A stretch of 64,000 nt of DNA, from the NCBI RefSeq assembly GCF_014698015.1, contig NZ_JACXBS010000001.1, positions 744,001 through 808,000 of the forward strand, given 5' to 3'. Position 1 is the first letter of the stretch. Each line of letters opens with the position of its first letter. Below are positions 988 through 64,000 of the stretch, piece by piece. The position numbers were made by a program, and so were the translations under genes. The stretch comes from Kocuria sp. cx-455. GTDB taxonomy: Bacteria > Actinomycetota > Actinomycetes > Actinomycetales > Micrococcaceae. The notes below the pieces were generated by a model. That model ran no database searches, had not been told where the DNA came from, and was given only the letters and a program-made list of their open reading frames with translations.

Positions 988-995
988 ATTGTCGA

Positions 996-1001: not shown

Positions 1002-1009
1002 GGTACACC

Positions 1010-2059
1010 GTGACTGAAACCAGCCGACTGAATGGCTCATTGCGTTTGCCCGGAGGATTTGAGCTCATTGCCCGGGACGACCGCCTGGGTCCGCTCGTCG
1101 TGGAATCACTCGCGCAGATCGAAACGCGGCTGGAAGAGGCCCTGCGCTCGACCGATCACCTGGCGGACGTCACCGCGCGTCATCTGCTGCAAGCCGGCGG
1201 CAAACGCGTGCGCCCGCTGCTCACACTGCTTGCCGCGGAGGTGGCCGGCCAGGTCAATCAAAAGGTGATCGAGGCTGCGGCCGTAGTGGAAATGACGCAC
1301 CTGGCCACGCTCTACCACGACGACGTGATGGATTCCGCCCCCCTGCGACGCGGTGTCGAGACCGCGCAGACGGTGTGGGGCAACTCCGTGGCGATCCTCA
1401 CCGGTGACCTGATCTTTGCCCGCGCCTCCGCCATGGTCTCCGCACTGGGCCAGGAGCCCTTGCTGATCCAGGCTAAGACGTTCGAGCGGCTGGTCATCGG
1501 GCAGCTGCAGGAAACCACGGGCCCCACGCAGGGCGAGGATCCCGTGGCCCATTACCTCAAGGTGTTGGCGGGTAAGACCGGTTCCCTGATTGCCGCCAGC
1601 GGTCAGTACGGTTCCCTGTTGGGCGGAGCCCCGGGAGACGTCATCGACATGCTGGTCGAGTACGGCGAGAAGGTGGGCCTGGCCTTCCAGCTCGCGGACG
1701 ACATCATTGATCTCACGGGACACGACGACGTCTCCGGCAAGACCCCGGGCACCGACCTGCGCGAAGGCGTGGACACGCTGCCCGTGCTCCTGCTGCGCCG
1801 GGATGCGAAGAGCGAGAACCCGTCGGTTGCGGATGCCGCCCGGGAGGTCCTGGACCTCATCGACGGTGACCTGGCCAGCGATGACGCACTGGCCCGAGCG
1901 GTGGCGGCCGTGGCCGCCCATCCCGTGTCCGAGGAGGCGTGGGACACGGCCAACCGGTGGGCCGATGATGCCATTGCCGCGATCCGGCCCCTGCCGGACA
2001 CCGTGGCCAAGGCGGCACTGATCGAATTCGCCCACGCGGTGGTGCACAGAGAAGGCTGA
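1010..2059 (+). CDS. Polyprenyl (heptaprenyl/octaprenyl-type) diphosphate synthase
   Basis: Trans-isoprenyl diphosphate synthase of 349 residues that condenses isopentenyl diphosphate units into the menaquinone side-chain precursor in the cytosol. Both aspartate-rich motifs are present: DDVMD at about residues 104-108 and DDIID at 230-234; the GGKRVRP substrate-binding segment is near residue 64. The frame is also open to a TTG at 989, but GTG 1010 is preferred because TAGAGT lies 8 nt upstream and fits a leaderless transcript. It follows the MenJ-type reductase by 22 nt, so the two probably serve quinone synthesis together. Chain length cannot be read from the sequence by eye. Confidence 0.88.
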   Translation: MTETSRLNGSLRLPGGFELIARDDRLGPLVVESLAQIETRLEEALRSTDHLADVTARHLLQAGGKRVRPLLTLLAAEVAGQVNQKVIEAAAVVEMTHLATLYHDDVMDSAPLRRGVETAQTVWGNSVAILTGDLIFARASAMVSALGQEPLLIQAKTFERLVIGQLQETTGPTQGEDPVAHYLKVLAGKTGSLIAASGQYGSLLGGAPGDVIDMLVEYGEKVGLAFQLADDIIDLTGHDDVSGKTPGTDLREGVDTLPVLLLRRDAKSENPSVADAAREVLDLIDGDLASDDALARAVAAVAAHPVSEEAWDTANRWADDAIAAIRPLPDTVAKAALIEFAHAVVHREG

Positions 2060-2159
2060 CACGTCAGTAAGCTGGGGACCATCCAAGAACCGCCCCGCTT
2101 TTCGCTGTGATCCAGTCGGATGCTCGGGCGGCATGTGTTCCCCCTGTGAGGATCATTGA

Positions 2160-8749: not shown

Positions 8750-11065
8750 ATGGAAGACACTCGACGACCCGCCCCGCGGGATGGCCAACAAAATTCGACA
8801 TCAGCGGCCAATGATGAGCCATTACTCGATGCTGTCCGCAGCGGCGATCGTCAGGCCTTCGCGGAACTGTACAAGCGCCACTGCGGGGCTGTGTTCGCCG
8901 TTGCCCGCCTTCACACCAACAGCCACGCCGAGGCGGAGGACATTACCTCGGAGGCCTTCACCCGGGTACTTGCCCTCCTGCAGTCCGGTGGTGGTCCACA
9001 GCAGTTCTTGCGCGCATATCTGGTCACCGCTGTGTCCCGCCTGGCGGCCGATCGCGCAAATGACCTCAATCGGGCCCAGCCTCAGGAGCCCCACGAGCAG
9101 GGCAAACTGGACCGGGTCCAACTCTTCGACGACATCGTGGTGCGTCAAGTGGACGCCGCTGTCGTCGCGCGGGCCTTCGCATCCCTGCCCGAGCGTTGGC
9201 AAGAGGTGCTCTGGTACCTCGAGATCGAGGGTTATCGGCCGCGCCAAGTGGCCTCCGTGGTGGGCATTCGACCCAACGCCGTCTCCGCACTGGGCAAGCG
9301 CGCTCGCGAGGGCCTCCGGACGGCGTACATGCAACAACACGTATCTGCGCAGGCCCTTGAGGAGTGCGGCGAATACTCCACGCAGTTGGGGGCCTTCGTG
9401 CGTGGCACGCTCACACCGTCCAAGATGAAGCTCATGCAGGACCACCTTGATTCCTGCCAACGATGCACGGCGGAGTACCTTCAACTGCAGGATCTGGGTG
9501 TGGGTCTGCGCGGTTGGATCCTGCCCGTCCTGGCGGGTCTGCCGCTCTGGGGTGATGCCCCTGATCGCTTGATTGCCGCACTCGGCACGGCGGGTGCCGG
9601 CAGCGCCGCCGGTGCTTCCGGCGTAATGTCCGCTACCACGACGCCGCTCGGGGCCTACGCCCCAGGGGCCTCGGTTCCCGCTGCGGCAACAGCAACCACG
9701 GCGGCGTCGGCAACGGCAGCGTCCACCGCCTCGGTTTCGGCAGTCACCGCTGCGGCGGGCGGAGTCATCACCGGTTCGACCACAAAGGTCATTCTTGCGG
9801 CCGCCGGAGTGGCCGTTGCGGGGACCGGCACCGCCGGCATCGTGGCCACCGCCCAGCAGGACTCGTCAGAGGTGGTGAACTCTCAACCGGCGCAACCGGC
9901 CACGAACGGCCATGGCGGCGGTTCTATGGGTTCTGTGGGAGATCCGCATAGTACGGGCGCTCCCGACAGAGGCGACGAATCCATCGGGTCGTTGCGGTCC
10001 CCGGCGCCTGAACCCTCGGCCGCTAGAGACGACCCTTCAGGAATCCGTCTACCCGCAGCCCGTGAAGATTCGGTGGTCCCGCAGCTCGAGGTGCCGTTGA
10101 CGCCCGTGCTGCCCGGCCCCGTGGCGCTCGGTGAATCTCCGGGCCCAGAAGTTGCAGGCCCGCCTGACAACCCGGCCGAAGACTCGTCCGATGACGTCGG
10201 GGACGGTGGGACGCCCGAGGTCCCCGGACCCGTCGAGACGTCGGATCCGGTGGTGCCTTCGATCCCCGAGGTGCCCGGGCCCGTTGAAACTCCGGATCCG
10301 TTGATCACCCCCGTCCCCGAGATTCTCGAGCCGGTCGAGACATCGGATTCGGTGGTGCCTTCGGTCCCGGAGGTTCTCGAGCCGGTTGAGACGCCGGGTC
10401 CGGTGGTGCCTTCGGTCCCGGAGGTTCTCGAGCCGGTTGAGACGCCGGGTCCGGTGGTGCCTTCGGTCCCGGAGGTTCCCGGACCCGTCGAGACGCCGGA
10501 TTCGGTGGTATCTCCGGTCCCCGAGATTCCCGGGCTGGTTGAGACGCCGGATTCGGTGGTGCCTTCGGTTCCGGAGGCTCCCGGGTCGGCTGAGATGCCG
10601 GATCCGGTGGTGCCTCTAGTCCCCGAGGTTCCCGGTACAGATGATGCCGGCACGGATGATCCCGGTCCGGCCGATCCGAACGGCACGAGCGGGAACGAAA
10701 ACCGCACCGACACCCCCGTCACGCCCGACACCTCGGTAATTTCCGACACTCCCGGAGCCCAGCCGAGCACGCCGGAAATCGAAGCCCCTGCGACGCCCGG
10801 AGCGCCGTCGTTGCCCGAGGAACCGCCGCTAACCGGGCCGGATACCGAGCCGGCGGTTCCAGCCATCGACCCAACCGTGTCGTCGCCGACTGTTCCGGTG
10901 ACCGAACCAACGCAACCCGCGCCGAATCCCACTGACTCGTTGGCTGCCCCGGACGTGACGGTGCCCGAGAATCCCAGCGACGTCACAGGGCGGTGGGGAA
11001 CAGTTCCCAGCGGATGGACGTTGACTGATTGGATCGCGTATTTACTCACCGGTGTGCGCCCGTAA
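8750..11065 (+). CDS. Membrane-anchored ECF sigma factor: sigma2-sigma4, zinc finger, TM, 17-residue repeats
   Basis: 771-residue fusion. Residues ~23-85 form sigma region 2 (DAVRSGDRQAFAELYKRH, then an AEAEDITSEAF helix); ~140-195 form region 4 (LPERWQEVLWYLEIEGY...). A zf-HC2-like zinc site follows: H232, C236 and C239 are visible. After an Ala/Thr/Ser-rich linker comes one hydrophobic span (~346-368), then ~400 residues of Pro/Val/Glu-rich sequence holding eight 17-residue repeats (491-626). The expected topology is sigma domain inside and repeats outside the membrane. Linking sigma factor and anti-sigma-like sensor in one chain suggests release by proteolysis or signalling in cis, but that is inference. 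Target promoters are unknown. Confidence 0.82.
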   Translation: MEDTRRPAPRDGQQNSTSAANDEPLLDAVRSGDRQAFAELYKRHCGAVFAVARLHTNSHAEAEDITSEAFTRVLALLQSGGGPQQFLRAYLVTAVSRLAADRANDLNRAQPQEPHEQGKLDRVQLFDDIVVRQVDAAVVARAFASLPERWQEVLWYLEIEGYRPRQVASVVGIRPNAVSALGKRAREGLRTAYMQQHVSAQALEECGEYSTQLGAFVRGTLTPSKMKLMQDHLDSCQRCTAEYLQLQDLGVGLRGWILPVLAGLPLWGDAPDRLIAALGTAGAGSAAGASGVMSATTTPLGAYAPGASVPAAATATTAASATAASTASVSAVTAAAGGVITGSTTKVILAAAGVAVAGTGTAGIVATAQQDSSEVVNSQPAQPATNGHGGGSMGSVGDPHSTGAPDRGDESIGSLRSPAPEPSAARDDPSGIRLPAAREDSVVPQLEVPLTPVLPGPVALGESPGPEVAGPPDNPAEDSSDDVGDGGTPEVPGPVETSDPVVPSIPEVPGPVETPDPLITPVPEILEPVETSDSVVPSVPEVLEPVETPGPVVPSVPEVLEPVETPGPVVPSVPEVPGPVETPDSVVSPVPEIPGLVETPDSVVPSVPEAPGSAEMPDPVVPLVPEVPGTDDAGTDDPGPADPNGTSGNENRTDTPVTPDTSVISDTPGAQPSTPEIEAPATPGAPSLPEEPPLTGPDTEPAVPAIDPTVSSPTVPVTEPTQPAPNPTDSLAAPDVTVPENPSDVTGRWGTVPSGWTLTDWIAYLLTGVRP
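10220..10627 (+). repeat. Eight tandem 51-bp (17-aa) coding repeats in sigma-factor fusion
   Basis: Units of 51 bp begin at 10220, 10271, 10322, 10373, 10424, 10475, 10526 and 10577. The consensus peptide is VPGPVETPDPVVPSVPE. Units four and five (10373-10423, 10424-10474) are identical in DNA, pointing to recent duplication. The array stays in frame, so copy number can change without breaking the protein. Confidence 0.9.
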
Positions 11066-47695: not shown

Positions 47696-48082
47696 ATGGC
47701 TAAGCTGACCACCGAAGAATTGATCGAGGCTTTCAAGGAGCTCTCCCTCATCGAGCTGTCCGAGTTCGTCAAGGCCTTCGAAGAGACCTTCGACGTTACC
47801 GCTGCCGCCCCCGTGGCCGTGGCCGGTGGCGCTCCCGCAGCCGGCGGCGAAGCCGCTGCTGAGGAAGAGCAGACCGAGTTCGACGTCGTCCTGGAAGCCG
47901 CAGGCGAGAAGAAGATCCAGGTCATCAAGGAAGTTCGTGCCCTGACCTCCCTCGGTCTGAAGGAAGCCAAGGACCTCGTGGACGGCGCTCCCAAGCCCGT
48001 TCTGGAAGGTGCCACCAAGGAAGCCGCGGACAAGGCCAAGGAATCCCTCGAGGCTGCCGGCGCTACCGTCACCCTCAAGTAA
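47696..48082 (+). CDS. rplL: 50S ribosomal protein L7/L12
   Basis: 128-residue L7/L12: N-terminal dimer domain, an Ala/Gly hinge around residues 37-58 and the C-terminal factor-binding domain ([26 protein letters not shown]). Start ATG 47696, GAAGGAG 7 nt upstream. A strong terminator follows, so the unit rplJL does not read into gcvP. Confidence 0.97.
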
Positions 48083-48154
48083 TTGCCCGCGCTTCGCGCG
48101 CAGGTCGTCCCGCGTAGTTCGACCCGTCAGGGCCGCTGCCGGTGACATCACTTC

Positions 48155-48191
48155 GCAAAGCCCCGCATCATTTTTCGGTGCGGGGCTTTGC
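48155..48191 (+). terminator. Intrinsic terminator after rplJL
   Basis: Perfect 13-bp stem (48155-48167, 48179-48191), 11-nt T-rich loop. Confidence 0.85.
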
Positions 48192-48240
48192 GCTGCCCGG
48201 GGTTGTGCGAAACTAGGGGTGACCATCTTGGCCGTCACAG

Positions 48241-48455
48241 TGCGGCGGGAGAGCATGGCGGGTGCGCTCGCACCGCGTCATCGCCGAAGGAGCAAACCCT
48301 CCCCGGGAATCTCTCAGGCACCCGTACCGCCGCACCAGGCCACTCTGAAGAGCTCGCCCGCCACGGTTGTGTGGGCCGACACCGACGGGGCAAGCGGGTA
48401 CGCACGGTTCATGGTGCGTACCGGTGAAATCTCTCAGGTTGACGTACAGAGCGGG
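48241..48455 (+). promoter_or_regulatory. Tandem glycine riboswitch controlling gcvPT
   Basis: Two glycine aptamers in a row. The first (48241-48334) has an 8-bp closing stem, GGGAGAG near 48247 and the core AATCTCTCAGGCACC. The second (about 48343-48451) repeats the core as AAATCTCTCAGGTTGACG. Both conserved CTCTCAGG strings are seen at 48310 and 48430. A linker of ~8 nt joins them. No terminator stands between aptamer 2 and gcvP, so control may be at translation or by a non-canonical terminator. TAGGGG at 48214-48219 may be its -10. Confidence 0.93.
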
Positions 48456-48507
48456 GAGGAACTCACCGGGACTTAGCACGCCCTCAAGTAACCCAGGAGA
48501 CCCTCAC

Positions 48508-51401
<2,894 letters not shown>

Positions 51402-51402
<1 letters not shown>

Positions 51403-52547
51403 TGAGCGAGAAGAAAACGGCCCTGTACGCCGCCCACGAGGAACTGGGTGCCCGGTTCACCGATTTCGGCGGCTGGTCCATGCCGGTGCGCTACGCCAGC
51501 GACACCGCCGAGCACCACGCCGTGCGGCGCGGCGCCGGAATTTTCGACCTCTCGCACATGGGCGAGGTCGAGGTCTCCGGCCCGCAGGCGGGGGCCTTCC
51601 TGGACTTCGCCCTGGTGGGCGTGCTGTCCGCGGTCTCCGTGGGCCGCGCCAAGTACTCGGTGATCGTGGATTCCGAGGGCCGTGTGCTCGACGACCTGAT
51701 CACCTACCGGCTCGACGAGGACCGCTTCCTGGTGGTGCCCAACGCGGGTAATCAAGAAGTGGTCGTGCGTGAACTCACCGCTCGCGCCGAGGGTTTCGAC
51801 GTCGCCGTGACCGACCAGGGTGCCGAGACCTCCCTGATCGCAGTTCAGGGGCCCCGAGCCCTCGAGGTCCTCAAGGCCACGGACCTGGACCCCAGCGACG
51901 TCGTCGAGAACCTCAAGTACTACGCCGCCGCACCGGCGCGTTGTGCCGGCGTCGACGTCTTGACCGCCCGCACCGGCTACACCGGTGAGGACGGATTCGA
52001 GCTGTACTGCAGCAATCAGGACGCCCCGCAACTGTGGAACGCGCTGCTGGCAACGGCGGAGGAACGGTCCACCGAGGACGCGCCGGTCTCCGCCGCGGGA
52101 CTGGCCGCGCGTGACTCGCTTCGCCTGGAAGCGGGCATGCCGTTGTACGGGCACGAGCTCTCCACGGAGATCACCCCGGCCGAGGCAGGCCTGGGTAAGC
52201 TCGTGGAGATCTCCCTGCGCAAGAAGGGCGAGGCGGGCACGGACACCGTGGGCCGTGAGGCCCTCACGGCCGTGACCGAATCCGACCCCGAGCGCACCCT
52301 GGTCGGGCTGGAAGGCGTGGGGCGCAAGCCGATCCGGGCCGACTACACCGTGGTCTCAGGGGGTGAGACGGTGGGTGTGGTCACCAGTGGTCTCCCCTCG
52401 CCCACGCTCGGCAAGCCCATTGCCATGGCGCTGGTGGCCACCGCCGCGCTGCCCCGGATCGCCCAGGGCGATGTCAGCGTTCGGGACGCCCGCGGCCGCG
52501 AGATCGAGGTCAAGCACACGGAGCTGCCGTTCTACAAGCGCGGCTGA
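51402..52547 (+). CDS. gcvT: Aminomethyltransferase, T-protein
   Basis: 381-residue tetrahydrofolate-dependent T-protein, producing methylene-THF and ammonia. GGWSMPVRYASDTAEHHAVRRGAGIFDLSHMGEVEV is the typical N-terminus (folate-site Asp in FDLSHMGE). The start ATG overlaps the gcvP stop (TGATG), so they are coupled. The frame upstream overlaps gcvP and is not used. A long terminator ends the operon without gcvH, which must be elsewhere. Confidence 0.95.
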
Positions 52548-52587
52548 TCGGCGCCTCAAACGCGCCCTGCGGAAGCGGCCGTCACGA

Positions 52588-52627
52588 CCACGGGTCGGGC
52601 ACCTCGTTGGAGGTGTCCGACCCGTGG
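52588..52627 (+). terminator. Intrinsic terminator after gcvPT
   Basis: 18-bp stem with one wobble (52588-52605, 52610-52627), 4-nt loop, followed by TGTTTT. Confidence 0.9.
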
Positions 52628-52696
52628 TGTTTTCGGCGTGCATGCTCCGGGCACGTGGGTGGCCGGCGGAACGAGGGACCTTTCGGGCTCGGTGGT

Positions 52697-53011
52697 TCAG
52701 TCCCGGTCCTTACGGGGCATGAAGGCGCGCACCGAGGCCAGCTTGTGAGAGCCGTCGCAGTGCGGGGCTATGCTGGTCATCCCGCAGCGGCACAGGGCAA
52801 TCACCGCGCGCTCGGACGGCCGCGGTTCGGCCCCGGGCTCGGAGGCCAAGAGAAAATCTCCGCGAACCAGCAGCGGGCCCCTGGGGCACACGGTGATGAC
52901 GGCGGGGTCCTCGGCCGGGGTCGGCGCCTGCGGCTCACACGGGGCGGGTGCATCGGCGCGCTCGACCTCCTCGTGGGCGCGTGCTGCATCGTCGGAGGAA
53001 TCCGCGCTCAT
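52697..53011 (-). CDS. CDGSH-type iron-sulfur protein
   Basis: 104-residue protein with the 2Fe-2S binding sequence CRCGMTSIAPHCDGSH near residues 76-91 (three Cys and one His). The N-terminal ~40 residues are acidic and proline-rich, then a short PRGPLLVRGDF strand. CDGSH proteins bind redox-active, acid-labile clusters. ATG 53011 overlaps the stop of the upstream iron-containing redox enzyme gene by 4 nt (ATGA), so the two act together, possibly as electron donor and oxidase. Confidence 0.88.
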   Translation of the reverse strand: MSADSSDDAARAHEEVERADAPAPCEPQAPTPAEDPAVITVCPRGPLLVRGDFLLASEPGAEPRPSERAVIALCRCGMTSIAPHCDGSHKLASVRAFMPRKDRD

Positions 53012-54057
53012 GTCCGGGGTTCCGGGGTGCGCAGCGAAGACCGGCCCGAGGACCAGGCCTCCAGCATGTGATCGCCCGCGCGTCCGTCCACGTAGAGGCA
53101 CGCGGCCGCCCCGAAGAAAATGTCCTCGGTCAGGTGAGGTTCGTCATCGACGAGGTTTCCCACGAGGTCTCGCGCGGCCAACTGTTCATGCACGGCGTCG
53201 GCCTCGACGTGCTCGTCGAAGTACCAGGTGACGTCCTGGCCGTAACCGTTCTTGCGGAACGCGTTGCCGTAGTGCTTGTTGGGGATGGTCGAGGTCATCT
53301 CAAAGGCCGCCAGGTGGCCCACATTGGCACCGCGCAAGCGGCGGTGGAGACCGAACATGCTGATGAGGTTGGTCGACGCCAGGGTGCTGGCCGGTACCAG
53401 ATCCACGTACGCCTCAGGGGTGTCGTCCAGGCCGAAGTTGCGCATGGTGCGGGCAAAGATCTCGGAGTGCACCTTGTCCGGGTGGCCGCCACCGTATTCG
53501 TCGGCCTGGATCTCCACCATGGCTGCCTTGGCGCGTCCCTGGAGTTTGGGAATGGACCACGTGTGCGGATCCGCTTCGCGCAGGGTGTAAATGGATCGCT
53601 GAATGAGGAACTCACGCAGTAGTTCCTCGGTGGCGTTCTTGGCCAGCCAGATGGCGGTGCTCGGCTTGGCGGCGGGCTGGGTCATCTCGAAGAGAGCTTC
53701 CGCGGCGTCCTTGCCGTCGCGGGGCAACGGCGAGGGCAGCACCACGTGCGCGCGCAATTGCGCTTCAAAGCGTTCCTCGATCAGGGACCGTAACCGAATC
53801 AGCTCCGGATCCCATTCCCAGTCGCCACGCAGGAAATCGACCGGACCGTAGTGCAGCAGGTACAGCAGGAACAGGGTGAGCTGTAGGTCTTCGTCACCCA
53901 AGATGTCGTGGCACTCGTTCAGCGCTCGTTCGACCGCGGCACCTAATCCGAGCGTTGCATCGGGGGATTGCTGCCCTCCGGTCAATACGGCAATCAGTGC
54001 AGAGCTCACAGGCCCTCGGGCAGTGGGAGTCTCGGTTTTTTCCGTCAATGTGGTCAC
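53008..54057 (-). CDS. Iron-containing redox enzyme (heme-oxygenase-like fold)
   Basis: 349-residue protein of the 'iron-containing redox enzyme' group, an HDO-type (heme-oxygenase-like diiron) fold. Acidic and histidine residues typical of metal binding appear in EIQADEYGGGHPDKVHSEIF (about 188-207) and in WYFDEHVEADAVHEQ (about 277-291). GTG 54057 is chosen as start because the sequence upstream in frame lacks family features, but the RBS is weak and this start is tentative. It is coupled with a CDGSH protein. Substrate is unknown. Confidence 0.75.
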   Translation of the reverse strand: MTTLTEKTETPTARGPVSSALIAVLTGGQQSPDATLGLGAAVERALNECHDILGDEDLQLTLFLLYLLHYGPVDFLRGDWEWDPELIRLRSLIEERFEAQLRAHVVLPSPLPRDGKDAAEALFEMTQPAAKPSTAIWLAKNATEELLREFLIQRSIYTLREADPHTWSIPKLQGRAKAAMVEIQADEYGGGHPDKVHSEIFARTMRNFGLDDTPEAYVDLVPASTLASTNLISMFGLHRRLRGANVGHLAAFEMTSTIPNKHYGNAFRKNGYGQDVTWYFDEHVEADAVHEQLAARDLVGNLVDDEPHLTEDIFFGAAACLYVDGRAGDHMLEAWSSGRSSLRTPEPRT

Positions 54058-54266
54058 CGGTCTCAACTTTCTGTCACTTACAGCGTCCCATGCGTCTACA
54101 CGGACCCAACAGTGTGGCCCGTCATGCGTGACACCGCAGATGACGGACCGTAACCTATTGTAAGACGGCTTAGCGTGGGCCTGGTCGTCCACCGACAGTA
54201 TGTGGTCCGAACTTCGCTCCGGGCGGGTCTGTCTGTGCACGGGTTACGGGCCGGGAGGGAAAAATC

Positions 54267-55010
54267 ATGTTCTTGAAAAATGTGGCCCCTGGGATCCATA
54301 TGATCCAAAGCCATAACGTCAACTGCTACCTGCTCGAGGATGATCAGGGGCTCACCCTGGTGGACGCGGGTCTTCCGAGGGTCTGGACCGAACTGGGGCA
54401 CGCGATCCGCGAACTCGGGCGAGTACCCGCGGACCTCAAGGCGCTGGTGCTGACCCACGCGCACTTCGACCACGTGGGAGTGGCCGCCAAACTCGTTGAG
54501 CGACTCGGTATTCCGGTGTACGCCCACCACGAAGAAGTGACCCTGGCCGCCCACCCCTATCGTTACGCGCATGAGAATCCAGTGGCCGCATATCCCGTGC
54601 AACATCCCCGGGCCATCCCGGTACTGCTGTCCATGGTGTTCGGTGGTGCGGCAGCGGTGAAGGGGGTGACGGTCTCGCGACGGCTCGAGGTGGGGCAGGA
54701 GGTTCCGGTTCCGGGCCGCCCCAGGGTGGTCCTCTCAGCCGGCCACACGTACGGGCACTGCGCCCTGCACTTGCCCCAATCCGACGCCCTCATCACCGGG
54801 GACGCGCTCGTCACGCTCGATCCGTATTCCGGGCTGACCGGACCGCGAATTGTCGCAAAGGCGGCCACTGCGGACAGCGCCATGGCCATCGAGTCCCTCC
54901 ACGCCTTGGCGCAGACCGGTGCCACGGTGGTGCTTCCGGGACACGGGGATCCATGGCTGGGGGGGGTTGAACGAGCGGCCGACGAGGCGCGCCGCAACGG
55001 TGTCGCCTAG
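54267..55010 (+). CDS. MBL-fold metallo-hydrolase
   Basis: 247-residue zinc hydrolase with the motif THAHFDHVG (residues 63-71: H64, H66, D68, H69); later histidines are in SAGHTYGHCALH and the final GHG near 230. It is of the glyoxalase II/lactonase-like subgroup, substrate not predictable. GGAGGG lies upstream of ATG 54267. The stop TAG is part of the CCTAGC target of the transposable element that follows, so the insertion left the protein unaltered. Confidence 0.88.
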   Translation: MFLKNVAPGIHMIQSHNVNCYLLEDDQGLTLVDAGLPRVWTELGHAIRELGRVPADLKALVLTHAHFDHVGVAAKLVERLGIPVYAHHEEVTLAAHPYRYAHENPVAAYPVQHPRAIPVLLSMVFGGAAAVKGVTVSRRLEVGQEVPVPGRPRVVLSAGHTYGHCALHLPQSDALITGDALVTLDPYSGLTGPRIVAKAATADSAMAIESLHALAQTGATVVLPGHGDPWLGGVERAADEARRNGVA

Positions 55011-56020
55011 CTGTAGGAGGCCAGGACGTTGGTGACGCGCGACGGCGTCGCCGAGGCCGGCGGCTCTCCGCCGTGCGCACCGTGGGGCCGGTGGTAGTTG
55101 TAGTGCCGGTTCCATGTTGTGAGCGCACTGGAGCGTTCGGTCTCTGAGCTCCAAGTCCTGGCGTACAGGAACTCTTCGGCCAGGATGCGGTTGTAGCGCT
55201 CGACTTTACCGTTGTGCTTGGGCGTGTACGGCCTCGTGCGGCGGTGCTCTGCGCCGTTGAGAGCATCCGTGAATGCCTGGGCGCGGTAGCAGGCGCCGTT
55301 GTCAGTGACGATCCGCTCGATCTTCGTGATGCCGTGCTGGGCGAACCACTCGCGCGCTCGGCCGAGGAAAGCAACCGCGGTCGCTGCCTGTTCGTTCTCG
55401 AGGGCCTCGGTGTAAGCCAGGCGCGTGTGCCCGTCGATCGCGGAGTGTAGGTAGACGTATCCGCTGCGCGTACCTCGCTCCTTCGTTCGCGCGACGGCTC
55501 TGGCCTGAGCGCTCTCTCTTCCGTGCGCGCGCCAGCCGCCGCCGTCGGGGATGCGGCCCGTCTTCTTCACGTCGAGATGAACCATGTGCCCTGGGCGTGC
55601 CGCGACGATCTTCTGCGGCTGTCGATTTGTTTCGCCGTTCGGGTCGATGAACTTTCTACGGTTCAAGCCGAGCTCGGCGAGGAGCCTCGTGATCGTGCGA
55701 CGGCTGACTGTTGTTCCTGCCTGTTCGAGCTCGAAGACGATGCGGGATGCCGGCCATTTGTGCTCGCGCCGCATCGACTCGATCTTGGCGACGATGTGGC
55801 CTTGTGTGGAGGTCGGCTGCCGCAGGGGTGTGGACGGGCGATCGCGGAGACCGAGCTCCCCGTACTGGCGATACCGGTTCACCCACTTCGATGCGGTTGC
55901 GCGGGAGATGCCCATCTCGGCAGCGACATGCGCGATCGGACGGCCCCGGCAGCGTTCGACGAGCCGGCGGCGTCCTTCAGGGGTGAGCGGTGCGTTGCGG
56001 TGCACCGTGCGGCTCCTCAT
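55007..56020 (-). CDS. IS481 family transposase
   Basis: 337-residue DDE transposase. The N-terminal helix-turn-helix (about residues 10-60, PIAHVAAEMGISRATASKWV) binds the ends; the catalytic residues are D150 (HLDVKK), D240 (VTDNG) and E274 (GKVERYN). ATG 56020 overlaps the serine-hydrolase stop (ATGA), so it is translated last in a three-gene cargo operon. The final sense codon and the TAG stop are completed by target bases (55007-55011), not by the element. It appears intact. Confidence 0.93.
   Translation of the reverse strand: MRSRTVHRNAPLTPEGRRRLVERCRGRPIAHVAAEMGISRATASKWVNRYRQYGELGLRDRPSTPLRQPTSTQGHIVAKIESMRREHKWPASRIVFELEQAGTTVSRRTITRLLAELGLNRRKFIDPNGETNRQPQKIVAARPGHMVHLDVKKTGRIPDGGGWRAHGRESAQARAVARTKERGTRSGYVYLHSAIDGHTRLAYTEALENEQAATAVAFLGRAREWFAQHGITKIERIVTDNGACYRAQAFTDALNGAEHRRTRPYTPKHNGKVERYNRILAEEFLYARTWSSETERSSALTTWNRHYNYHRPHGAHGGEPPASATPSRVTNVLASYS
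55012..55037. repeat. Left terminal inverted repeat and target duplication
   Basis: Begins TGTAGGAGGCCAGG; CCTAGC target copy lies directly outside (55006-55011). The transposase C-terminus (RVTNVLASY) is encoded across this repeat. Confidence 0.82.
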
Positions 56021-57390
56021 GATTCCCGCGGGTGGAGGCGGGCGTTGGTGTGGATGTATTGGGCGCGCCCGTCGTGGAAGCCGAAGATCGCGGCGGTCTG
56101 CATGTCTTCGAGCGGCGTGTTCGGAGGCAGGAGGAAGTGAGTGTCGTCGATGGGGAGCAGGTCGTGGGTGATGCGGTCGGGTGTGCACATGATCGCGGCC
56201 TGCATGGGGTCGACGTCGAGGTGAAGCTGGAGGTGGCCGTGTTCACTGGTGACCTCGAAGCGGGTGCCGGGTCGTTCGTAGACGCCGATGTAGCGGGCCG
56301 GGTCCAGGGTCGGTGCCGGGTCGGGGACCGGCAGGGGCGGGATGGTGGCGGTGCCCAGCCGGGTGAAGATGAGGTCGAAGATCTCCCGGTGGCGTCCTTC
56401 GCGGGAGTCGCCGTTGCTGAGCAGGACGAGGGCGAGGTCGTCGTCGGGCAGGATGCGCATGCGGGCGTTCTGCCCGATCGTGCTCCCGTCGTGCCCGTAG
56501 ACGTCGTGCCCGTGCCAGTTGTCCACGACCAGGCCAAGTGCCCATTCCCGGCCGAGGGTGTAGGGATCGGGGATCGGCACCCGCGAGGTCATCATCTCTC
56601 GTATGGCGGTGGCCGAGACGATGCGCTGTCCGTTCGGGGCGAGACCAGCGTGCAGGTAGACGTGGGCGAGGGCGAGCACGTTGCGGACGGTGGAGGTGAC
56701 TCCGCCGCCGGCCCCGAACGCACGGGGCAGGTCGTCCACCGGCGTAGGGATCGGCCCCTCGTCGAGCGACCGGATCAGATGACCTCGGGCCGCACGGGCC
56801 GGTTCGACCTCTTCGCGCCACGCGTGGGTGCTGGTCGCACCCATCGGGGTGAAGATCCGGTCGGTCATGATCCGATGCCAGGGTTTGCCGTCGATGACTT
56901 CCATGATGCGGGCGAGGATCGCGTAGCCCAGCGCGGCGCTGTATCCGTGGACCGAGCCGAGGGGGCTGACCTGGGGAGCATCCACGATCGCTGCGACCAT
57001 CCGCCCATACACGTCATCGTCTTCGCCGGGGTCACCGTAGGATTCCTCGATCCCGCTCGTGTGATTGAGCAGCTGCCGTGGCGTCACCTGGGCGCTCACG
57101 GCCGGGTCGGCCACCTGAAAGTGCGGCAGGTAGCTTTGCACCGGTTCATCCAGGGCGGCTCTGCCTTCGTCGACAAGTTGCAGGAAGGCCAGCGCCGTCC
57201 ACGACTTCGTCAGCGACCCGCACTGGAACACCATGCCGGATGTCACAGGCTCCCCCGTGGTGATGTCTTGCACGCCGTAGGCGAGTTCGGTCACCTCGCC
57301 ACGGTGCAGGACGCCGATCACAGCGCCGGGCGTCTGATACTCGTCCAGAATCTGCCCGATCCGGAATTCGAGCTCTGCCAGCGGGTTCAC
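56017..57390 (-). CDS. Serine hydrolase, class C beta-lactamase-related (transposon cargo)
   Basis: 457-residue penicillin-binding-protein-like serine hydrolase. The active-site serine is S59 in SLTK (59-62); the second motif is YSA (150-152) in place of YxN, and the third HDG (299-301) in place of KTG. A beta-barrel-like C-terminal domain (~345-457) follows, as in D-aminopeptidases and carboxylesterases (EstB type). No signal peptide is apparent from GTG 57390, suggesting a cytosolic esterase or peptidase rather than a secreted beta-lactamase. GTG follows the previous stop by 8 nt. Confidence 0.82.
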   Translation of the reverse strand: MNPLAELEFRIGQILDEYQTPGAVIGVLHRGEVTELAYGVQDITTGEPVTSGMVFQCGSLTKSWTALAFLQLVDEGRAALDEPVQSYLPHFQVADPAVSAQVTPRQLLNHTSGIEESYGDPGEDDDVYGRMVAAIVDAPQVSPLGSVHGYSAALGYAILARIMEVIDGKPWHRIMTDRIFTPMGATSTHAWREEVEPARAARGHLIRSLDEGPIPTPVDDLPRAFGAGGGVTSTVRNVLALAHVYLHAGLAPNGQRIVSATAIREMMTSRVPIPDPYTLGREWALGLVVDNWHGHDVYGHDGSTIGQNARMRILPDDDLALVLLSNGDSREGRHREIFDLIFTRLGTATIPPLPVPDPAPTLDPARYIGVYERPGTRFEVTSEHGHLQLHLDVDPMQAAIMCTPDRITHDLLPIDDTHFLLPPNTPLEDMQTAAIFGFHDGRAQYIHTNARLHPRES

Positions 57391-57398
57391 ACGTGGGC

Positions 57399-57656
57399 CT
57401 ACTTGCCGAGTCCGATGGCGTTCGCCGCGTCGGCTTCGGTGTACTCGGTCACCGCTGCCGGTCCGGCATATCCGTCGAGCAGATCGCGCACCGCGTCGAT
57501 CGAGTCGTGCCGGATCACGTTCACCGCCCTCGTCCCGTCCGTGCTCGCGACGGCGAACACCCACGCCGCACCTTTGGGCAGGCGGCCATGCGCTTTCTTC
57601 AGCCCGCTCCAGAACCGGTCGCTGTCGTTCACGGTCGAGATCGCCAAGACGTGCAT
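57399..57656 (-). CDS. 85-residue cargo protein of unknown function
   Basis: Small protein beginning MHVLAISTVNDSDRFWSGLKK and containing VRDLLDGYAG, in an alternating strand-helix pattern like ferredoxin-fold (Dabb/EthD-type) proteins; this is only a guess. AAGGAGG lies 6 nt before ATG 57656. It is the first gene of the leftward cargo operon, with the serine hydrolase and transposase following. Confidence 0.72.
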   Translation of the reverse strand: MHVLAISTVNDSDRFWSGLKKAHGRLPKGAAWVFAVASTDGTRAVNVIRHDSIDAVRDLLDGYAGPAAVTEYTEADAANAIGLGK

Positions 57657-57671
57657 GACACCCTCCTTTAT

Positions 57672-57704
57672 GTTTCAGATCACTGAAACGCTACGTTGCG
57701 TTTC
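57672..57704. promoter_or_regulatory. Nested inverted repeats between divergent cargo genes (operator candidate)
   Basis: GTTTCAG/CTGAAAC (57672-57678, 57683-57689; 4-nt spacer) and GAAACGC/GCGTTTC (57685-57691, 57698-57704; 6-nt spacer) overlap in the 145-nt gap. This is the natural place for the divergent regulator to bind. Confidence 0.6.
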
Positions 57705-57801
57705 TTCAGGCGTCAACGTAAAGTGCCAGGAATCAGAAGATCGTTGCGAGACTATGGTGGTGAACGCAATCCTGCGCGTTGCAGTGTGATCGGAGGACGG
57801 A

Positions 57802-58728
57802 ATGGTGGTGAGCCGGCTGAGTCTCGAGGACCGGCAGACGATCGCGGCCGGGCTCGCCGAAGGACGCTCCTACGCGCAGATCGCACGACAGATCGGACGC
57901 CCCACCTCGACCGTCAGCCGCGAGGTAGCCCGCAATGGGCATCGCGACTACGACGCCGCCGACGCGCAACAGACGAAACGGCGGCGCACCTGCAAACGCG
58001 TCACCGTGGCACCGGCGAACAGCGCCGAGGACGTCCAGCACGCATTCATCACGGAACTCGCCTCCACGCTCACCGCGACGGGAATGCCCCGAATGGCCTC
58101 GCGCGTCTTCGCCAGCCTGGCCACGTCCACGACCGACACCATGACGGCTGCCGACCTCGTACGCGGCCTCGGCGTCAGCCCCGCATCGGTGTCGAAAGCG
58201 ATCGGGTATCTCGAGGGCATAGAGCTGGTCGAACGCCACGTCGAGCCCGGGAGTCGCAAAGAGCGATACGGAGTCGGCGACGACGTCTGGACACGAGCGG
58301 TCCGCACTGATTCCAGCGGCCACGCGAGCGTCGCCGACGTGGCCGATCGCGGCATCGCCCTCTTCGGCGACGAAAGCCCGGCTGGCATCCGGCTCGCCCA
58401 CATGGGCCGATTCTTCGCGAGCCTGACTGAGCAACTCCGCGGCAGCAACCTCGCGGACCCGACCGTCGACGACGCCATGACCATCGTCGCCGCGCTCGGC
58501 CACACGCGGCACCGGATGACCCGAGCACAACTGGCCACCACACTCGAATGGAGCACTCGCCGACTCGACGACGCACTACAACAATTACGGCAACATCCGG
58601 TGTTCGCCGACCCGTTCACAGTCCACGAGAACAACGCAGGCTACTGCCTACAAGCCCGGCCCGACCGCCTCTCCGCACAGCAACACGCGGCCCTCCAGAA
58701 GCTGACGGCATCAACCGACGATCAATGA
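57802..58728 (+). CDS. Regulator with IS30-like HTH fused to MarR/GbsR-like winged helix (cargo)
   Basis: 308-residue DNA-binding protein. Residues ~5-47 (LSLEDRQTIAAGLAEGRSYAQIARQIGRPTSTVSREVARNG) match the HTH_38 domain of IS30 transposases, without any DDE domain. Residues ~95-165 form a winged helix (TAADLVRGLGVSPASVSKAIGYLEGIELVERH) like MarR/GbsR regulators; a further helical domain follows. GGAGG lies 6 nt upstream of ATG 57802. It is divergent from the hydrolase operon and stops 6 nt inside the right repeat, so it belongs to the element and probably controls it. Confidence 0.85.
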   Translation: MVVSRLSLEDRQTIAAGLAEGRSYAQIARQIGRPTSTVSREVARNGHRDYDAADAQQTKRRRTCKRVTVAPANSAEDVQHAFITELASTLTATGMPRMASRVFASLATSTTDTMTAADLVRGLGVSPASVSKAIGYLEGIELVERHVEPGSRKERYGVGDDVWTRAVRTDSSGHASVADVADRGIALFGDESPAGIRLAHMGRFFASLTEQLRGSNLADPTVDDAMTIVAALGHTRHRMTRAQLATTLEWSTRRLDDALQQLRQHPVFADPFTVHENNAGYCLQARPDRLSAQQHAALQKLTASTDDQ

Positions 58729-58734
58729 CCCGAC

Positions 58735-58760
58735 CGTCAACAACCTCATGGCCAGCAACA
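58735..58760. repeat. Right terminal inverted repeat and target duplication
   Basis: Complement begins TGTTGCTGGCCATGAGG; CCTAGC target copy at 58761-58766. Beyond it, 58767-58973 is intergenic, with an AT-rich patch (58810-58870) that may hold the ctaD promoter. Confidence 0.82.
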
Positions 58761-58973
58761 CCTAGCGATCCCGTGGCCCGGCGGCGGTGACGATGGTGGC
58801 CTTGGGGCGATATTTAATGGGCGAATAATTAACGCTGTGTAGAAATTGATCAGTAGGGCTATTGAATGCTTGCCGCTCAGGCGTAACGTGGATTACACGA
58901 GACCCTTTGCCCACGATCACACCGGCGGAGCCGCTTCTGTACCCCCAGCAGAAATGCCCGGTTAGGACGCATC

Positions 58974-60698
58974 ATGGTCATCCATGAATACACGGCAACC
59001 GAACGTCGCAGCCGCGCGAAAGTAGCCGCGGGTCCCCGCTCCAAGGGGCGGGTCATTGCCTCCTGGCTCACCTCCACCGATCACAAGACCATCGGGTACA
59101 TGTACCTGATCGCCTCGTTCACGTTCTTCTGCCTAGGCGGCGTCATGGCGCTGCTGATCCGTGTGGAACTCTTCGATCCCGGTTTGCAGATTTTGGAAAC
59201 CAAGGAACAGTACAACCAGTTGTTCACCATGCACGGCACGCTGATGCTGTTGATGTTCGGAACTCCCTTGTTCATTGGTTTCGCCAATGTGCTGGTGCCG
59301 TTGCAGCTCGGTTCACCCGACGTAGCCTTCCCTCGGCTCAATGCGCTCGCATTCTGGTTCTTCCTGTTCGGCTCTTTAGTGGCTATCGCGGGGTTCATCA
59401 CCCCGCAGGGCGCCGCATCGTTTGGTTGGTTCGCGTACGCACCCCTGAATGACACCACGTTCAGTCCCGGGGTGGGTGGGGATCTCTGGACGTTTGGGCT
59501 CGCACTTCAGGGTTTTGGCACCATCATGGGTGGTGTCAACTTCATCACCACCATCCTGTGCATGCGCGCCCCCGGTATGACGATGTGGCGCATGCCCATC
59601 TTCACGTGGAACATTCTTCTCACATCCATGCTCGTGATCATGGCCTTCCCTCCACTGGCCGCAGCGCTCTTCGCGCTCGGCATGGACCGCCGTATGGGCG
59701 GGCACATCTTCGATCCGGAGAACGGCGGTGCCATTCTCTGGCAGCACCTGTTCTGGTTCTTCGGGCACCCCGAGGTGTACATCATCGCGCTGCCGTTCTT
59801 CGGCATCGTCTCCGAAATCATCCCGGTGTTCTCGCGGAAACCGATCTTTGGGTACAAGGGGCTGGTCTTCGCGACTATTGCGATTTCCGCGCTGTCCATC
59901 ACGGTGTGGGCTCACCACATGTTCGTCACCGGCGCGGTGGCACTGAGCTTCTTCGCCTTTATGTCCATGATGATTGCGGTGCCCACCGGCGTGAAATTCT
60001 TCAACTGGATCGGCACCATGTGGCAGGGTTCTGTGACCTTTGAGACACCCATGTTGTGGTCCCTCGGATTCTTGTTCACGTTCCTCTTCGGTGGACTCAC
60101 CGGCATCATCCTGGCCACACCCGTCCTGGATTTCCACGTCTCCGACACGTACTTCGTGGTGGCCCACTTCCACTACGTGGTGTTCGGCACCGTGGTGTTC
60201 TCCATGTTCGCCGGGTTCTACTTCTGGTGGTCCAAGTTCACCGGCAAGATGCTGAACGAGCGGCTGGGAAAAATCCACTTCTGGATGTTGTTCATCGGCT
60301 TCCACATGACCTTTCTCGTTCAGCACTGGCTGGGAGTGAGTGGGATGCCCCGCCGGTACGCGGACTACATGCCGGAGGACGGGTTCACGTGGATGAATCA
60401 GCTGTCGACCGCCGGTGCCATTCTGTTGGGGCTGTCCATGGTTCCGTTCTTCTGGAACGTGTACACCACTCATCGGCACGCGAAGAAGATCGAAGTGGAT
60501 GACCCATGGGGCTTCGGGTGCTCTCTGGAATGGGCCACGTCCTGCCCGCCTCCGCGCCACAACTTTGTTTCTCTGCCGCGCATCCGGTCCGAGCGCCCAG
60601 CTCTGGATCTGCATCACCCGGAGCTGGCGGCGTTCGCAAGTCAGCAGTTCGACGCCGGCATACCGCTGGCCGGAGGTGGCGGGACGCGTGGCAGTTGA
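58974..60698 (+). CDS. ctaD: Cytochrome c oxidase subunit I (stand-alone copy)
   Basis: 574-residue heme-copper oxidase catalytic subunit with twelve spans. HPEVY (crosslinked His-Tyr), the HH of CuB (AHHMFVTG) and the HFHYVVFG heme ligands are all present, and the proton-channel residues are of A-family type. AGGA lies 6 nt before ATG 58974. No ctaC, ctaE or ctaF lies here, so it would need subunits encoded elsewhere and may be a second copy. It sits between the transposable element and rpoB. Confidence 0.92.
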
Positions 60699-61007
60699 CG
60701 AACGCAACAGGCCAAACGCGCCCGCGCGACGGCGTCTTCCTTCGGGATGAATCCCGGCGCGGAAGGCAAGGTAGGTAACCAGAGGGGGGGGGTATCGTAC
60801 GACGAGTTGTCCAGTGCGTCCACTACTGGTGTGGACAACACGCAAAAGAAGCCGTAAACTAATAGCTTGCGTTGTCCCTTATACATGCGTGCCTTCATAT
60901 AGCGGTGGGCGCCACCGGGGCGGGTTGCGCACACAGCCGACACCAGCCCCCAATTCTCATCTCGGGAACCTCGCGAATTCACTGCATGTCTGTGGAAGGA
61001 TCACATC
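60699..61007 (+). promoter_or_regulatory. ctaD-rpoB intergenic region with likely rpoB promoter
   Basis: TGGACA (60832-60837) and TAAACT (60855-60860), 17 nt apart, make the best promoter, giving a ~140-nt leader. GTTGTCCA (60806-60813) and TGGACAAC (60832-60839) form an inverted repeat that overlaps the -35; a third GTTGTCC is at 60871-60877. A run of nine G occurs at 60784-60792. No gene is seen. Confidence 0.6.
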
Positions 61008-64000
61008 TTGGTCGCCTCGAGCACCGATTCGAACGTCACCGCCAATCACCCCACGAGCGATAACATTCCTCGTCGAATTTCTTTCGCAAAGATCCATGAG
61101 CCGCTGGACGTCCCCAACCTGCTTGCACTTCAGACGGACAGCTTCGACCGTCTGGTGGGCAATGAGCGTTGGCAGGCCCGCCTCGCACAGGCTCAAGAGA
61201 CCGGCGAGACCGGGGTGGCCACCACGTCCGGACTGTCGGATATTTTCGAGGAAATCTCTCCCATTGAGGATTTCCAGGGGACCATGTCCCTGTCGTTCTC
61301 CGAACCGGAGTTCTACGACCCCAAATACACCATGGATGAGTGCAAGGACCGCGACGCCACCTACTCGGCGCCGTTGTACGTCAAGGCCGAGTTCATGAAC
61401 AACACCACCGGCGAGATCAAGCAGCAGACCGTGTTCATGGGCGACTTCCCGCTCATGACCGAAAAGGGAACCTTTGTCATCAACGGTTCTGAGCGCGTGG
61501 TCGTCTCGCAGCTGGTGCGTTCCCCCGGTGCCTACTTCGAAAAGGGCCAGGACCGCACGTCGGACAAGGACATCTTCTCCGCGAAGATCATTCCGTCCCG
61601 CGGTGCGTGGTTCGAGCTCGAGATCGACAAGCGCGATCAGGTGGGCGTCCGTCTGGACCGTAAGCGTAAGCAGTCCGTGACCGTGCTGCTCAAGGCTCTG
61701 GGCTGGACCGAGTCCAAGATTCTCGAGGAGTTCGGCGAGTACGACTCGATCCGTGCCACCCTCGAAAAGGACACCACCGAGACCCGCGAAGAAGCTTTGC
61801 TGGACATTTACCGCAAGCTGCGTCCGGGGGAGCCGCCCACGGTTGATGCTGCCCAGTCCCTGCTGGACAACATGTACTTCAACCCCAAGCGTTACGACCT
61901 GGCCAAGGTGGGCCGTTACAAGATCAACCGCAAGCTGGGCCTGGACAAGGCCTTCACTGACGCGGACGCTTCGGTGCTGTCCGTGGACGACATCGTGGCC
62001 ATGATCCGTTACCTGGTCACCCTGCACGCCGGTGGTTCCACCATGCAGGGCACGCGTGACGGTGAACCGCGCGAGATCCACGTGGACGTCGACGACATCG
62101 ACCACTTCGGTAACCGCCGCATCCGCGCGGTGGGTGAGCTGATCGAGAACCAGATCCGCACCGGCCTGTCCCGTATGGAGCGTGTGGTCCGTGAGCGGAT
62201 GACCACCCAGGACGTCGAGGCCATCACGCCGCAGACCCTGATCAACATCCGCCCCGTGGTCGCCGCGATCAAGGAGTTCTTCGGAACCTCCCAGCTGTCG
62301 CAGTTCATGGACCAGAACAACCCGCTGGCCGGTCTGACGCACAAGCGCCGTCTCTCCGCGCTGGGCCCGGGTGGTCTGTCCCGTGACCGCGCCGGCATGG
62401 AAGTCCGTGACGTGCACCCCTCGCACTACGGCCGCATGTGCCCGATTGAAACCCCTGAGGGCTCCAACATCGGCCTGATCGGTTCGTTGGCGACCTACGC
62501 GCGCATCAACCCCTTCGGTTTCATCGAGACCCCCTACCGCAAGGTTGTCAACGGAGTCGTCACCGACGAGGTCAGCTACCTCACCGCGGACGACGAGCGC
62601 GGTGTCACCATTGCGCAGGCCAACGCCCCGTTGACCGAGGACAGCCACTTCGCCGAGGACGCCGTTCTGGCGCGTGCCTCCGATGGTTCCGGTGAAGCCG
62701 TGCTGGTGGAGCCCTCCGACGTCGAGTTCATGGACGTGTCTCCGCGCCAGATGGTGTCGGTGGCCACCGCCCTGATCCCGTACCTCGAGCACGACGACGC
62801 CAACCGCGCGTTGATGGGTGCCAACATGCAGCGTCAGGCTGTGCCGCTGTTGGTCTCGGAAGCACCGTTGGTCGGTACCGGTATGGAGCGTTACGCCGCG
62901 ATGGACGCCGGCGATTCCGTGTTGGCGATCAAGCCCGGTGTGGTCGAGGAGGTCTCCGCCGATCAGGTGAAGGTCCTCAATGACGACGGCACCACCAAGC
63001 TCTACCCGATCAACAAGTTCGTTCGTTCGAACCCGGGTAACACCTACAATCAGCGCGTGATCGTTTCCGAGGGTGAGCGGATCGAGGACCGCACGGTCAT
63101 CGCGGACGGCCCGTCGACCGATCAGGGTGAACTGGCGCTGGGTAAGAACCTGCTGGTTGCCTACATGTCCTGGGAAGGCCTCAACTACGAGGACGCGATC
63201 ATCCTCTCCCAGCGGATGGTTTCCGAGGACGTCCTGACCTCGATCCACATCGAGGAGCACGAGATCGATGCCCGCGACACCAAGCTTGGTGCCGAGGAAA
63301 TCACCCGTGACATCCCCAACGTGTCCGAGGAAGTGCTCTCCGCCCTGGACGAACGCGGCATCATCCACATCGGCGCCGAGGTTCAGGCCGGTGACATCCT
63401 GGTGGGCAAGGTGACCCCCAAAGGTGAGACCGAATTGACCCCCGAGGAGCGCTTGCTGCGCGCCATTTTCGGTGAGAAGTCCCGCGAAGTGCGTGACACC
63501 TCCCTGAAGGTGCCCCACGGCGAGTCCGGTACGGTGATCGGCGTGCGCGTGTTCGACCGCGACGACGAGGACGACGACCTGCCCGCCGGCGTGAACCAGG
63601 TGGTTCGCGTGTACGTTGCGCAGAAGCGCAAGATCACCGACGGCGACAAGCTCGCGGGTCGGCACGGTAACAAGGGTGTGATTTCCAAGATCTTGCCCAT
63701 GGAGGACATGCCGTTCCTCGCGGACGGCACCCCCGTGGACGTGATCCTGAACCCGCTGGGTGTGCCCGGCCGGATGAACTTGGGCCAGGTGCTCGAGGTT
63801 CACACGGGTTGGCTTGCCAAGCAGGGCTGGAACATTGAGGGCAACCCCGAGTGGTTGGACCGCCTGGCCAACTTCCCGAAGAGCTCCGGGCCCACCAACG
63901 TGGCCACCCCGGTGTTCGACGGCGCTCGTGAGGACGAGATCTTCGACCTGTTGGACCACACGAACCCCACCCGTGACGGCGATCGTCTGATCGACCGCAG
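61008..64000 (+). CDS. rpoB: DNA-directed RNA polymerase beta subunit (3'-truncated by window)
   Basis: First ~997 residues of RpoB, open to the window edge. TTG 61008 is the start, with GGAAGGA 8 nt upstream. Landmarks include [28 protein letters not shown] at the N-terminus, the rifampicin region [39 protein letters not shown] (about 425-463; wild-type D, H and S at the usual resistance positions) and GRHGNKGV near 884-891. rpoC should follow outside the window. Confidence 0.97.

What the first reader, a model, noticed from the sequence alone, without database searches (positions are those of the whole stretch)
55006..58766. Complete IS481-family element carrying a hydrolase-regulator cargo module
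Seen: 26-nt inverted ends (20/26), 6-bp direct repeats CCTAGC, intact DDE transposase, and three further genes all inside the repeats. Known: IS481 elements are usually around 1 kb with one gene and duplicate NCTAGN. Inference: this is a mobile unit that moves a serine hydrolase, a small protein and their own regulator, rather than an IS next to host genes.
Basis: partly seen in the sequence, partly recalled or inferred. Interest (0 to 1): 0.88.

Follow-up and report, generated by a model that had tools for sequence, protein, structure and literature searches.

The report
IS481 transposon carrying regulated hydrolase operon
A small mobile DNA element in a Kocuria-like bacterium carries, besides its own mover enzyme, a self-contained set of three genes (an enzyme, a small partner protein and probably their switch) that also exists in bacterial chromosomes without the element; the kind of element is known, this cargo set is a new example.

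Summary
In detail: 26-nt ends (20/26), CCTAGC repeats, open IS481 transposase, three further genes inside. The inference holds too. Kocuria carniphila has the empty site (MBL gene through one CTTAGC to ctaD). The whole unit, 91% identical end to end, lies elsewhere in Agromyces sp. Marseille-P2726 (transposase frameshifted, cargo open). A third genome keeps the cargo (82% nt) with the transposase all but gone.

The cargo is a chromosomal module: serine hydrolase, 85-aa partner (in one frame with the hydrolase in 15 of 23 fetched loci) and divergent HTH_38-MarR regulator, with a conserved 20-bp site between them. The transposase ATG overlaps the hydrolase TGA.

The kind is known: cargo-bearing IS481 elements with NCTAGN duplications are published (TnRErm46, ISArsp12). 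In my sample 29 of 31 delimited elements carry cargo, 13 with a 4-nt overlap between cargo gene and transposase, and 11 of 31 sit at a neighbour's TAG stop (control CTAG sites: 9 of 212). Function (perhaps detoxification) and coupled transposition are inferred, not shown.

The parts
55006..55011 (.). left target-site duplication CCTAGC; holds the transposase stop (TAG on -) and the MBL gene stop (TAG 55008-55010)
55012..55037 (+). transposase-side terminal inverted repeat
   Evidence: ends of the same type in 30 further delimited elements
55007..56020 (-). IS481-family transposase, 337 aa from ATG 56018-56020, which overlaps the hydrolase TGA as ATGA
56017..57390 (-). serine hydrolase of the class C beta-lactamase/esterase fold (PF00144), 457 aa; reaches no curated resistance family
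57399..57656 (-). 85-aa partner protein without significant Pfam or PDB match; in one open frame with the hydrolase in 15 of 23 fetched chromosomal loci
57685..57704 (.). 20-bp near-palindrome GAAACGCTACGTTGCGTTTC in the divergent intergenic region, candidate operator
57802..58728 (+). regulator with HTH_38 and MarR domains, 308 aa, divergent from the hydrolase operon
   Evidence: homologue beside the hydrolase in 23 of 23 fetched module loci
58735..58760 (-). distal terminal inverted repeat, 26/26 identical in 8 other fetched loci
58761..58766 (.). right target-site duplication CCTAGC
54267..55010 (+). host MBL-fold gene, left whole by an insertion at its stop codon

Best explanation
A complete IS481-family transposon of the CTAG-targeting type that moves a self-regulated hydrolase operon. 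Shown by sequence: one unit bounded by inverted ends and a 6-bp duplication, present as a unit in a second genus and absent from the site in a relative; its cargo is a module that also exists without the element. Inferred: the HTH_38-MarR protein controls both divergent units through the conserved site until a small molecule releases it; the hydrolase with its 85-aa partner then destroys or modifies that molecule (about 0.45); the transposase, as last gene of the same operon with an ATGA overlap, is made when the cargo is made (about 0.45). Insertion at CTAG often falls at TAG stop codons and leaves neighbours whole, as here. The confidence below is for the mobile unit with a captured module, not for the inferred steps.
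For: Unit in Agromyces sp. Marseille-P2726: 91.1% nt over the whole 3749 nt, duplication TCTAGG/TCTCGG, no match between flanks. Empty site. Remnant in G1386: cargo at 82.4% over element positions 963-3736, transposase all but gone. dN/dS window against Agromyces 0.12 small, 0.22 hydrolase, 0.34 regulator, all open there, while the transposase lies in three frames. Three genes together in 23 of 23 fetched loci. The 20-bp site with at most 3 mismatches in 22 of the 24 other module loci, shuffles 1 of 9200. 4-nt overlap of cargo gene and transposase in 13 of 29 cargo elements, overlap or gap of at most 7 nt in 22.
Against: Only three related copies of this cargo unit were found and one copy in the own genome, so present activity is not shown. 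The empty site reads CTTAGC, the Agromyces duplication matches 5 of 6. No substrate, ligand or operator binding is known; no sigma-70-like promoter was found. The site is fully palindromic nowhere (18 of 20 in the window, 10-18 elsewhere, mostly 14). In one search the start codon nearest the coupling position was taken, which favours short overlaps. Distant hydrolase homologues (37-38%) in three genomes of the same family stand without partner or regulator, and a regulator homologue (42%) on a Streptomonospora plasmid stands beside a DUF418 gene, so neither protein type is bound to this module.
Confidence: 0.85

Rival explanations
1. A plain 1-kb IS481 beside host genes, with a chance inverted repeat further right.
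For: Short IS481 elements of 1094 and 1120 bp with the distal end about 100 nt before the transposase exist (L062, L053).
Against: Whole unit in a second genus, empty site, distal end identical in 8 loci, no such pair in 20 resamples.
Confidence: 0.02
2. A fossil: the transposon brought the module in once and is now immobile; the cargo is kept as an ordinary host operon and the transposase is on its way out.
For: Single copy in the genome; two relatives with broken or lost transposase and open cargo genes; the two ends agree in only 20 of 26.
Against: In the window the transposase is open, the duplication is perfect, and the distal end matches other delimited elements 26/26.
Confidence: 0.3
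3. The cargo is not for detoxification but is a metabolic, esterase or peptide-processing enzyme.
For: The hydrolase profile matches solved esterases, D-peptidases and the PBP cyclase Ulm16.
Against: Sister elements mostly carry efflux, redox or resistance-type genes with regulators; no biosynthesis genes lie inside.
Confidence: 0.35

Closest known systems
TnRErm46 / ISRe46, Rhodococcus equi (PMC6794481, passages seen)
   Same: IS481 transposase at one end, cargo that includes a TetR regulator, NCTAGN duplications, CTAG supplying the transposase stop and the stop of some target genes, inverted repeat TGTTGCGGGTCATGACGTTG.
   Different: 6919 bp with seven ORFs and erm(46); here 3749 bp with hydrolase, 85-aa protein and HTH_38-MarR regulator.
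ISArsp12, said there to resemble ISPfr21 (PMC6305408, passages seen)
   Same: IS481, 2615 bp, two passenger genes, one an ArsR regulator, duplication CCTAGA.
   Different: Permease instead of hydrolase; other end sequence.
ISLxc2, Leifsonia xyli (PMC2516522, passages seen)
   Same: IS481, NCTAGN duplication, transposase stop inside the insertion site.
   Different: 1105 bp; the passages seen name only the transposase.
IS5564 / Tn5564 with cmx, Corynebacterium (PMC8304765, passages seen)
   Same: IS481 element listed with a chloramphenicol efflux gene, as in my L006 (annotated Cmx/CmrA) and its relatives.
   Different: Other cargo; the passages seen give no element boundaries.
Tn917 (recalled, no paper seen)
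   Same: Resistance operon and transposition induced together.
   Different: Tn3 family; there induction was measured, here it is inferred from a gene overlap.

Membership tests
IS481 family | transposase of the IS481 model | tested here: met
   NF033577 297 bits, cut-off 224; rve and LZ_Tnp_IS481 in Pfam
IS481 family | inverted ends beginning TGT and NCTAGN duplication | tested here: met
   3749 bp, four genes; published IS481 members with passengers exist, so this is not a strict criterion
cargo-bearing IS481 transposon | cargo lies between the ends and is found with them as a unit elsewhere | tested here: met
   same unit in Agromyces, empty site in K. carniphila
cargo-bearing IS481 transposon | transposition observed | not testable with these tools
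   needs an experiment
S12-type serine hydrolase (label recalled) | SxxK, Tyr and HxG/KTG motifs (motif names recalled) | tested here: met
   S61, K64, Y152, H302-D303-G304 invariant in 6 aligned proteins, numbered in the aligned 459-residue stretch
S12-type serine hydrolase (label recalled) | hydrolase activity | not testable with these tools
   needs an assay
class C beta-lactamase | curated family score | tested here: not met
   NF033085 53.6 bits, cut-off 415
MarR-type regulator | winged-helix domain match | tested here: met
   MarR_2 41.8 bits, cut-off 27; also HTH_38 59.8, cut-off 27
MarR-type regulator | binds its operator, released by a ligand | not testable with these tools
   only the conserved site was found
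anti-phage defence cargo | match to a defence model | tested here: not met
   PADLOC: none for hydrolase and small protein; regulator weak hits (E 2.9e-5 and 1.4e-4) to two CARF models over short stretches

The most novel reading that the evidence does not exclude
CTAG-type IS481 elements of actinobacteria are a modular vehicle in which a self-regulated protective operon sits between the distal end and the transposase, with the transposase as translationally coupled last gene, so that the compound sensed by the cargo's own regulator also switches on transposition, into stop codons where it does no harm.
Probability: 0.35. Interest if true: 0.72.

Novelty: new member of a known kind. Interest (0 to 1): 0.48.

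Why it matters
It gives a clean case of an enzyme-plus-regulator module, with its probable operator, packed into a minimal transposon: seen without the element (23 loci), in the mobile form (two genera) and after loss of most of the transposase (one genome). The wider pattern in my sample (29 of 31 elements with cargo, tight overlap with the transposase, insertion at stop codons) makes a testable claim about how small transposons spread regulated traits among actinobacteria at little cost to the host.

Tried and rejected
Structure of the 85-aa protein: AlphaFold2 with two sequences gave mean pLDDT 57.7, too low to use. Pfam and PDB profile searches gave nothing significant (best PDB E 0.19). 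Plasmid collection by protein: no match for the small protein at E 0.01; hydrolase 522 records, all under 60% identity, 37% in the best listed; regulator 88 records, 43% at most among the 20 listed, one unlisted record in the 60-80% band that I did not look up. Viral contigs: no exact copy of the 20-bp site. Defence reading: not supported. Promoter and terminator scan: nothing above chance. tRNA genes in 50000-62000: none. Induced Tn917 transposition: a search listing only, nothing specific in the 10 of 178 listed. A paper on eukaryotic IS481 relatives (PMC10045372, passages) was not used.

Limits of my counts. The 31 elements were found with rules of mine (ends within 8 mismatches of a typed consensus, 0.8-12 kb apart, duplication with at most one mismatch and a TAG or CTA), starting from relatives of this transposase, so cargo-free IS481 members further off are under-sampled. 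In one search the start codon nearest to coupling was taken; 4 of 29 cargo elements (L004, L055, L056, L070) gave no assignment. The stop-codon test uses an open-frame and GC3 rule of mine; at 150 and 250 codons the contrast was 11 of 31 against 15 of 218 and 11 of 31 against 4 of 206. Survival of harmless insertions explains it as well as a preference. The shuffles keep base content only, and many loci there come from one family. Two weak class hits (G522, G744) were not followed. My note gives the transposase start as 56021-56023; 56018-56020 is right.
Full report
What is there. Between two copies of CCTAGC (55006-55011, 58761-58766) the window holds a 3749-bp stretch with 26-nt inverted ends matching 20/26. 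In window 48001-64000 no other pair of positions meets the same test, and 0 of 20 Markov resamples have one. Inside are an IS481 transposase (NF033577 297 bits, cut-off 224), a serine hydrolase of the class C beta-lactamase/esterase fold (PF00144, 213.7 bits) that reaches none of the curated cut-offs listed (25 of 44 families shown), an 85-aa protein without a family and a divergent regulator with HTH_38 and MarR domains.

Where it is. The genome is probably a Kocuria: genome G259, placed in the same genus, has a contig of 180495 bases, the length of K. carniphila CCM 132 NZ_NOIT01000005.1, and a 60-base stretch tested is identical. The unit is single copy; two short weaker matches lie on contig C9.

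Empty site. The MBL gene was found in 22 of 27 genomes of the genus, in some only distantly. Ten close loci were aligned. In K. carniphila (L094) MBL runs through a single CTTAGC to ctaD (94% identical over 430 residues), without element or cargo; L094 is the only one of 19 loci with about 1.5-kb flanks in which ctaD was found (the window's own locus, where the element fills the flank, included). In G295 (MBL 96% identical) the same CTTAGC is followed by other DNA, and neither ctaD nor cargo is in the 10 kb held. In the other 8 MBL ends in TGA and other DNA follows. The MBL stop TAG is the TAG of the target site, so the gene stays whole.

The same unit elsewhere. Agromyces sp. Marseille-P2726 (L071:7270-11011) has it at 91.1% identity over its whole length, with both ends and a 5-of-6 duplication; the 1-kb flanks of the window find no match in the L071 flanks. 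Proteins: hydrolase 88.6%, small 92.9%, regulator 88.3%. dN/dS is 0.22, 0.12 and 0.34 and all three are open, while the transposase there lies in three frames. So the cargo outlives the transposase.

The cargo is a captured module. The small protein was found in 6 of 394 genomes of the class; with a profile in 3 of 396 of the order, the own one included, and in 42 of 297 of one distant family. I fetched 23 loci: three after and 20 of the 41 further hits. In 23 of 23 the hydrolase (57-75% identical), the small domain (62-75%) and the regulator (45-62%) lie together. None has a pair of IS481 ends; one TG-site with 6 mismatches and no CTAG in L141 looks like chance, and L190 has an IS481-like transposase (43%) about 3 kb away. 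In 8 the small gene is separate and lies between regulator and hydrolase, as in the window; in 15 it follows the hydrolase, with open frames of 562-658 residues, two of which I read in full. Such a fusion suggests that the two proteins act together. Not every relative keeps the set: three genomes of the window's own family have a hydrolase homologue of 37-38% without the partners, and the regulator type occurs beside other genes and, mostly as partial weak matches, in 112 of 398 genomes of the family of G1088.

The switch. The divergent intergenic region carries GAAACGCTACGTTGCGTTTC (18 of 20 palindromic). In the 24 other module loci the best match has at most 3 mismatches in 22, 4 in L176 and 6 in L190; shuffles reached 3 once in 9200. 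Elsewhere the site is 10-18 of 20 palindromic, mostly 14. CGTTGC boxes recur. Many loci come from one family and are not independent, but the site is kept between the window and that distant family. It is the best candidate for the regulator's operator.

Coupling to the transposase. The transposase ATG (56018-56020) overlaps the hydrolase TGA (56017-56019) as ATGA. I delimited 31 elements by both ends and a duplication with at most one mismatch: 23 of 53 genome loci, 3 of 5 plasmid stretches then held, 4 of 11 unnamed stretches after leaving out two duplicates, and the window; none in the shorter loci. 29 have further ORFs between transposase and distal end, 28 of them with a Pfam or BLAST-clustered match (L063 has none). 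Of the 29, 13 have a 4-nt overlap between cargo gene and transposase, 1 an 8-nt overlap, 8 a gap of 5-7 nt, 2 of 17, 1 of 58, and 4 could not be assigned. I infer, without proof, that the transposase is made as last gene of the cargo operon.

What sister elements carry. MFS exporters (L006, annotated Cmx/CmrA, L041, and by clustering L042, L122, L124), NAD(P)H-binding proteins with HxlR-like regulators (L048 scanned, L046, L047, L072 by clustering; similar L007), SDR proteins (L080 with TetR, L056 with a MerR-like protein, L043 with no regulator identified), MFS with TetR or ArsR type (L055, L070), an FAD monooxygenase with TetR (L058), OsmC with GntR (L050), another serine hydrolase with MerR (L040), TipA-type MerR with a glyoxalase-like protein (L126, by clustering L127), MerR with an unknown (L045, by clustering L054), DUF1761 with HxlR (L004), a PheS-like protein (L059, by clustering L052), a Clp_N-like stretch (L079), unknown (L063). 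Thirty proteins were scanned; the rest were assigned by BLAST clustering. By my count 19 of 29 carry a recognisable regulator, 7 of these by clustering and 1 (L007) by annotation.

Target choice. In 11 of 31 elements the TAG of the duplication is the stop codon of a long flanking open frame, in two of them on both sides; among other CTAG sites of the same loci it is 9 of 212 (Fisher p = 1.9e-6). This fits harmless insertion, by preference or by survival. CTAG is rare in the window (20 against 39 expected from trinucleotides).

Against the known. TnRErm46 (PMC6794481, passages) is an IS481 transposon with cargo and regulator, NCTAGN duplications and stop codons supplied by CTAG; its authors state that IS481 elements may carry resistance genes and regulators. 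ISArsp12, said to resemble ISPfr21 (PMC6305408, passages), ISLxc2 (PMC2516522, passages) and IS5564 (PMC8304765, passages) complete the picture. So the kind is known. My searches (in one search 15 of 35 papers were listed) showed no title or abstract start that describes this hydrolase cargo; that is not proof that none exists. The element is a new member with a cargo set that I did not see described; the general coupling idea is the more interesting, unproven part.

Noticed in passing
L208:6880-6960 and 9640-9760: In G1386 the decayed cargo unit is flanked by a 21-bp direct repeat (CTCGGCGCGCTCGTCGACTAG) that is the 3' end of a neighbouring open frame with its TAG stop; longer than the usual 6-bp duplication and unexplained.
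   Followed up: partly
L052:8850-9968 and L059:8868-9986: Two Nesterenkonia IS481 elements carry a PheS-like protein (tRNA-synt_2d, L059 scanned) as cargo; perhaps a spare target enzyme.
   Followed up: no
L126 and L127: Genome G083 (same genus) has two 2388-bp IS481 elements with related cargo (TipA-type MerR and glyoxalase-like) and different duplications (GCTAGT, CTTAGT): a sign of movement within the genome; the transposase of L127 matches in four pieces.
   Followed up: no
L005:6006-10484: A Kocuria rhizophila plasmid has four IS481-type ends in 4.5 kb (6006, 8109 with 6 mismatches, 8115, 10484), two of them almost touching: nested or back-to-back elements.
   Followed up: no
L043 and L080: Two IS481 elements with BLAST-related SDR cargo each hold another IS gene inside (IS4/5-type DDE and IS110-type).
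   Followed up: no
G000:C9:13095-13395: Two short weak matches to the transposase on another contig of the own genome, perhaps another IS481 member.
   Followed up: no
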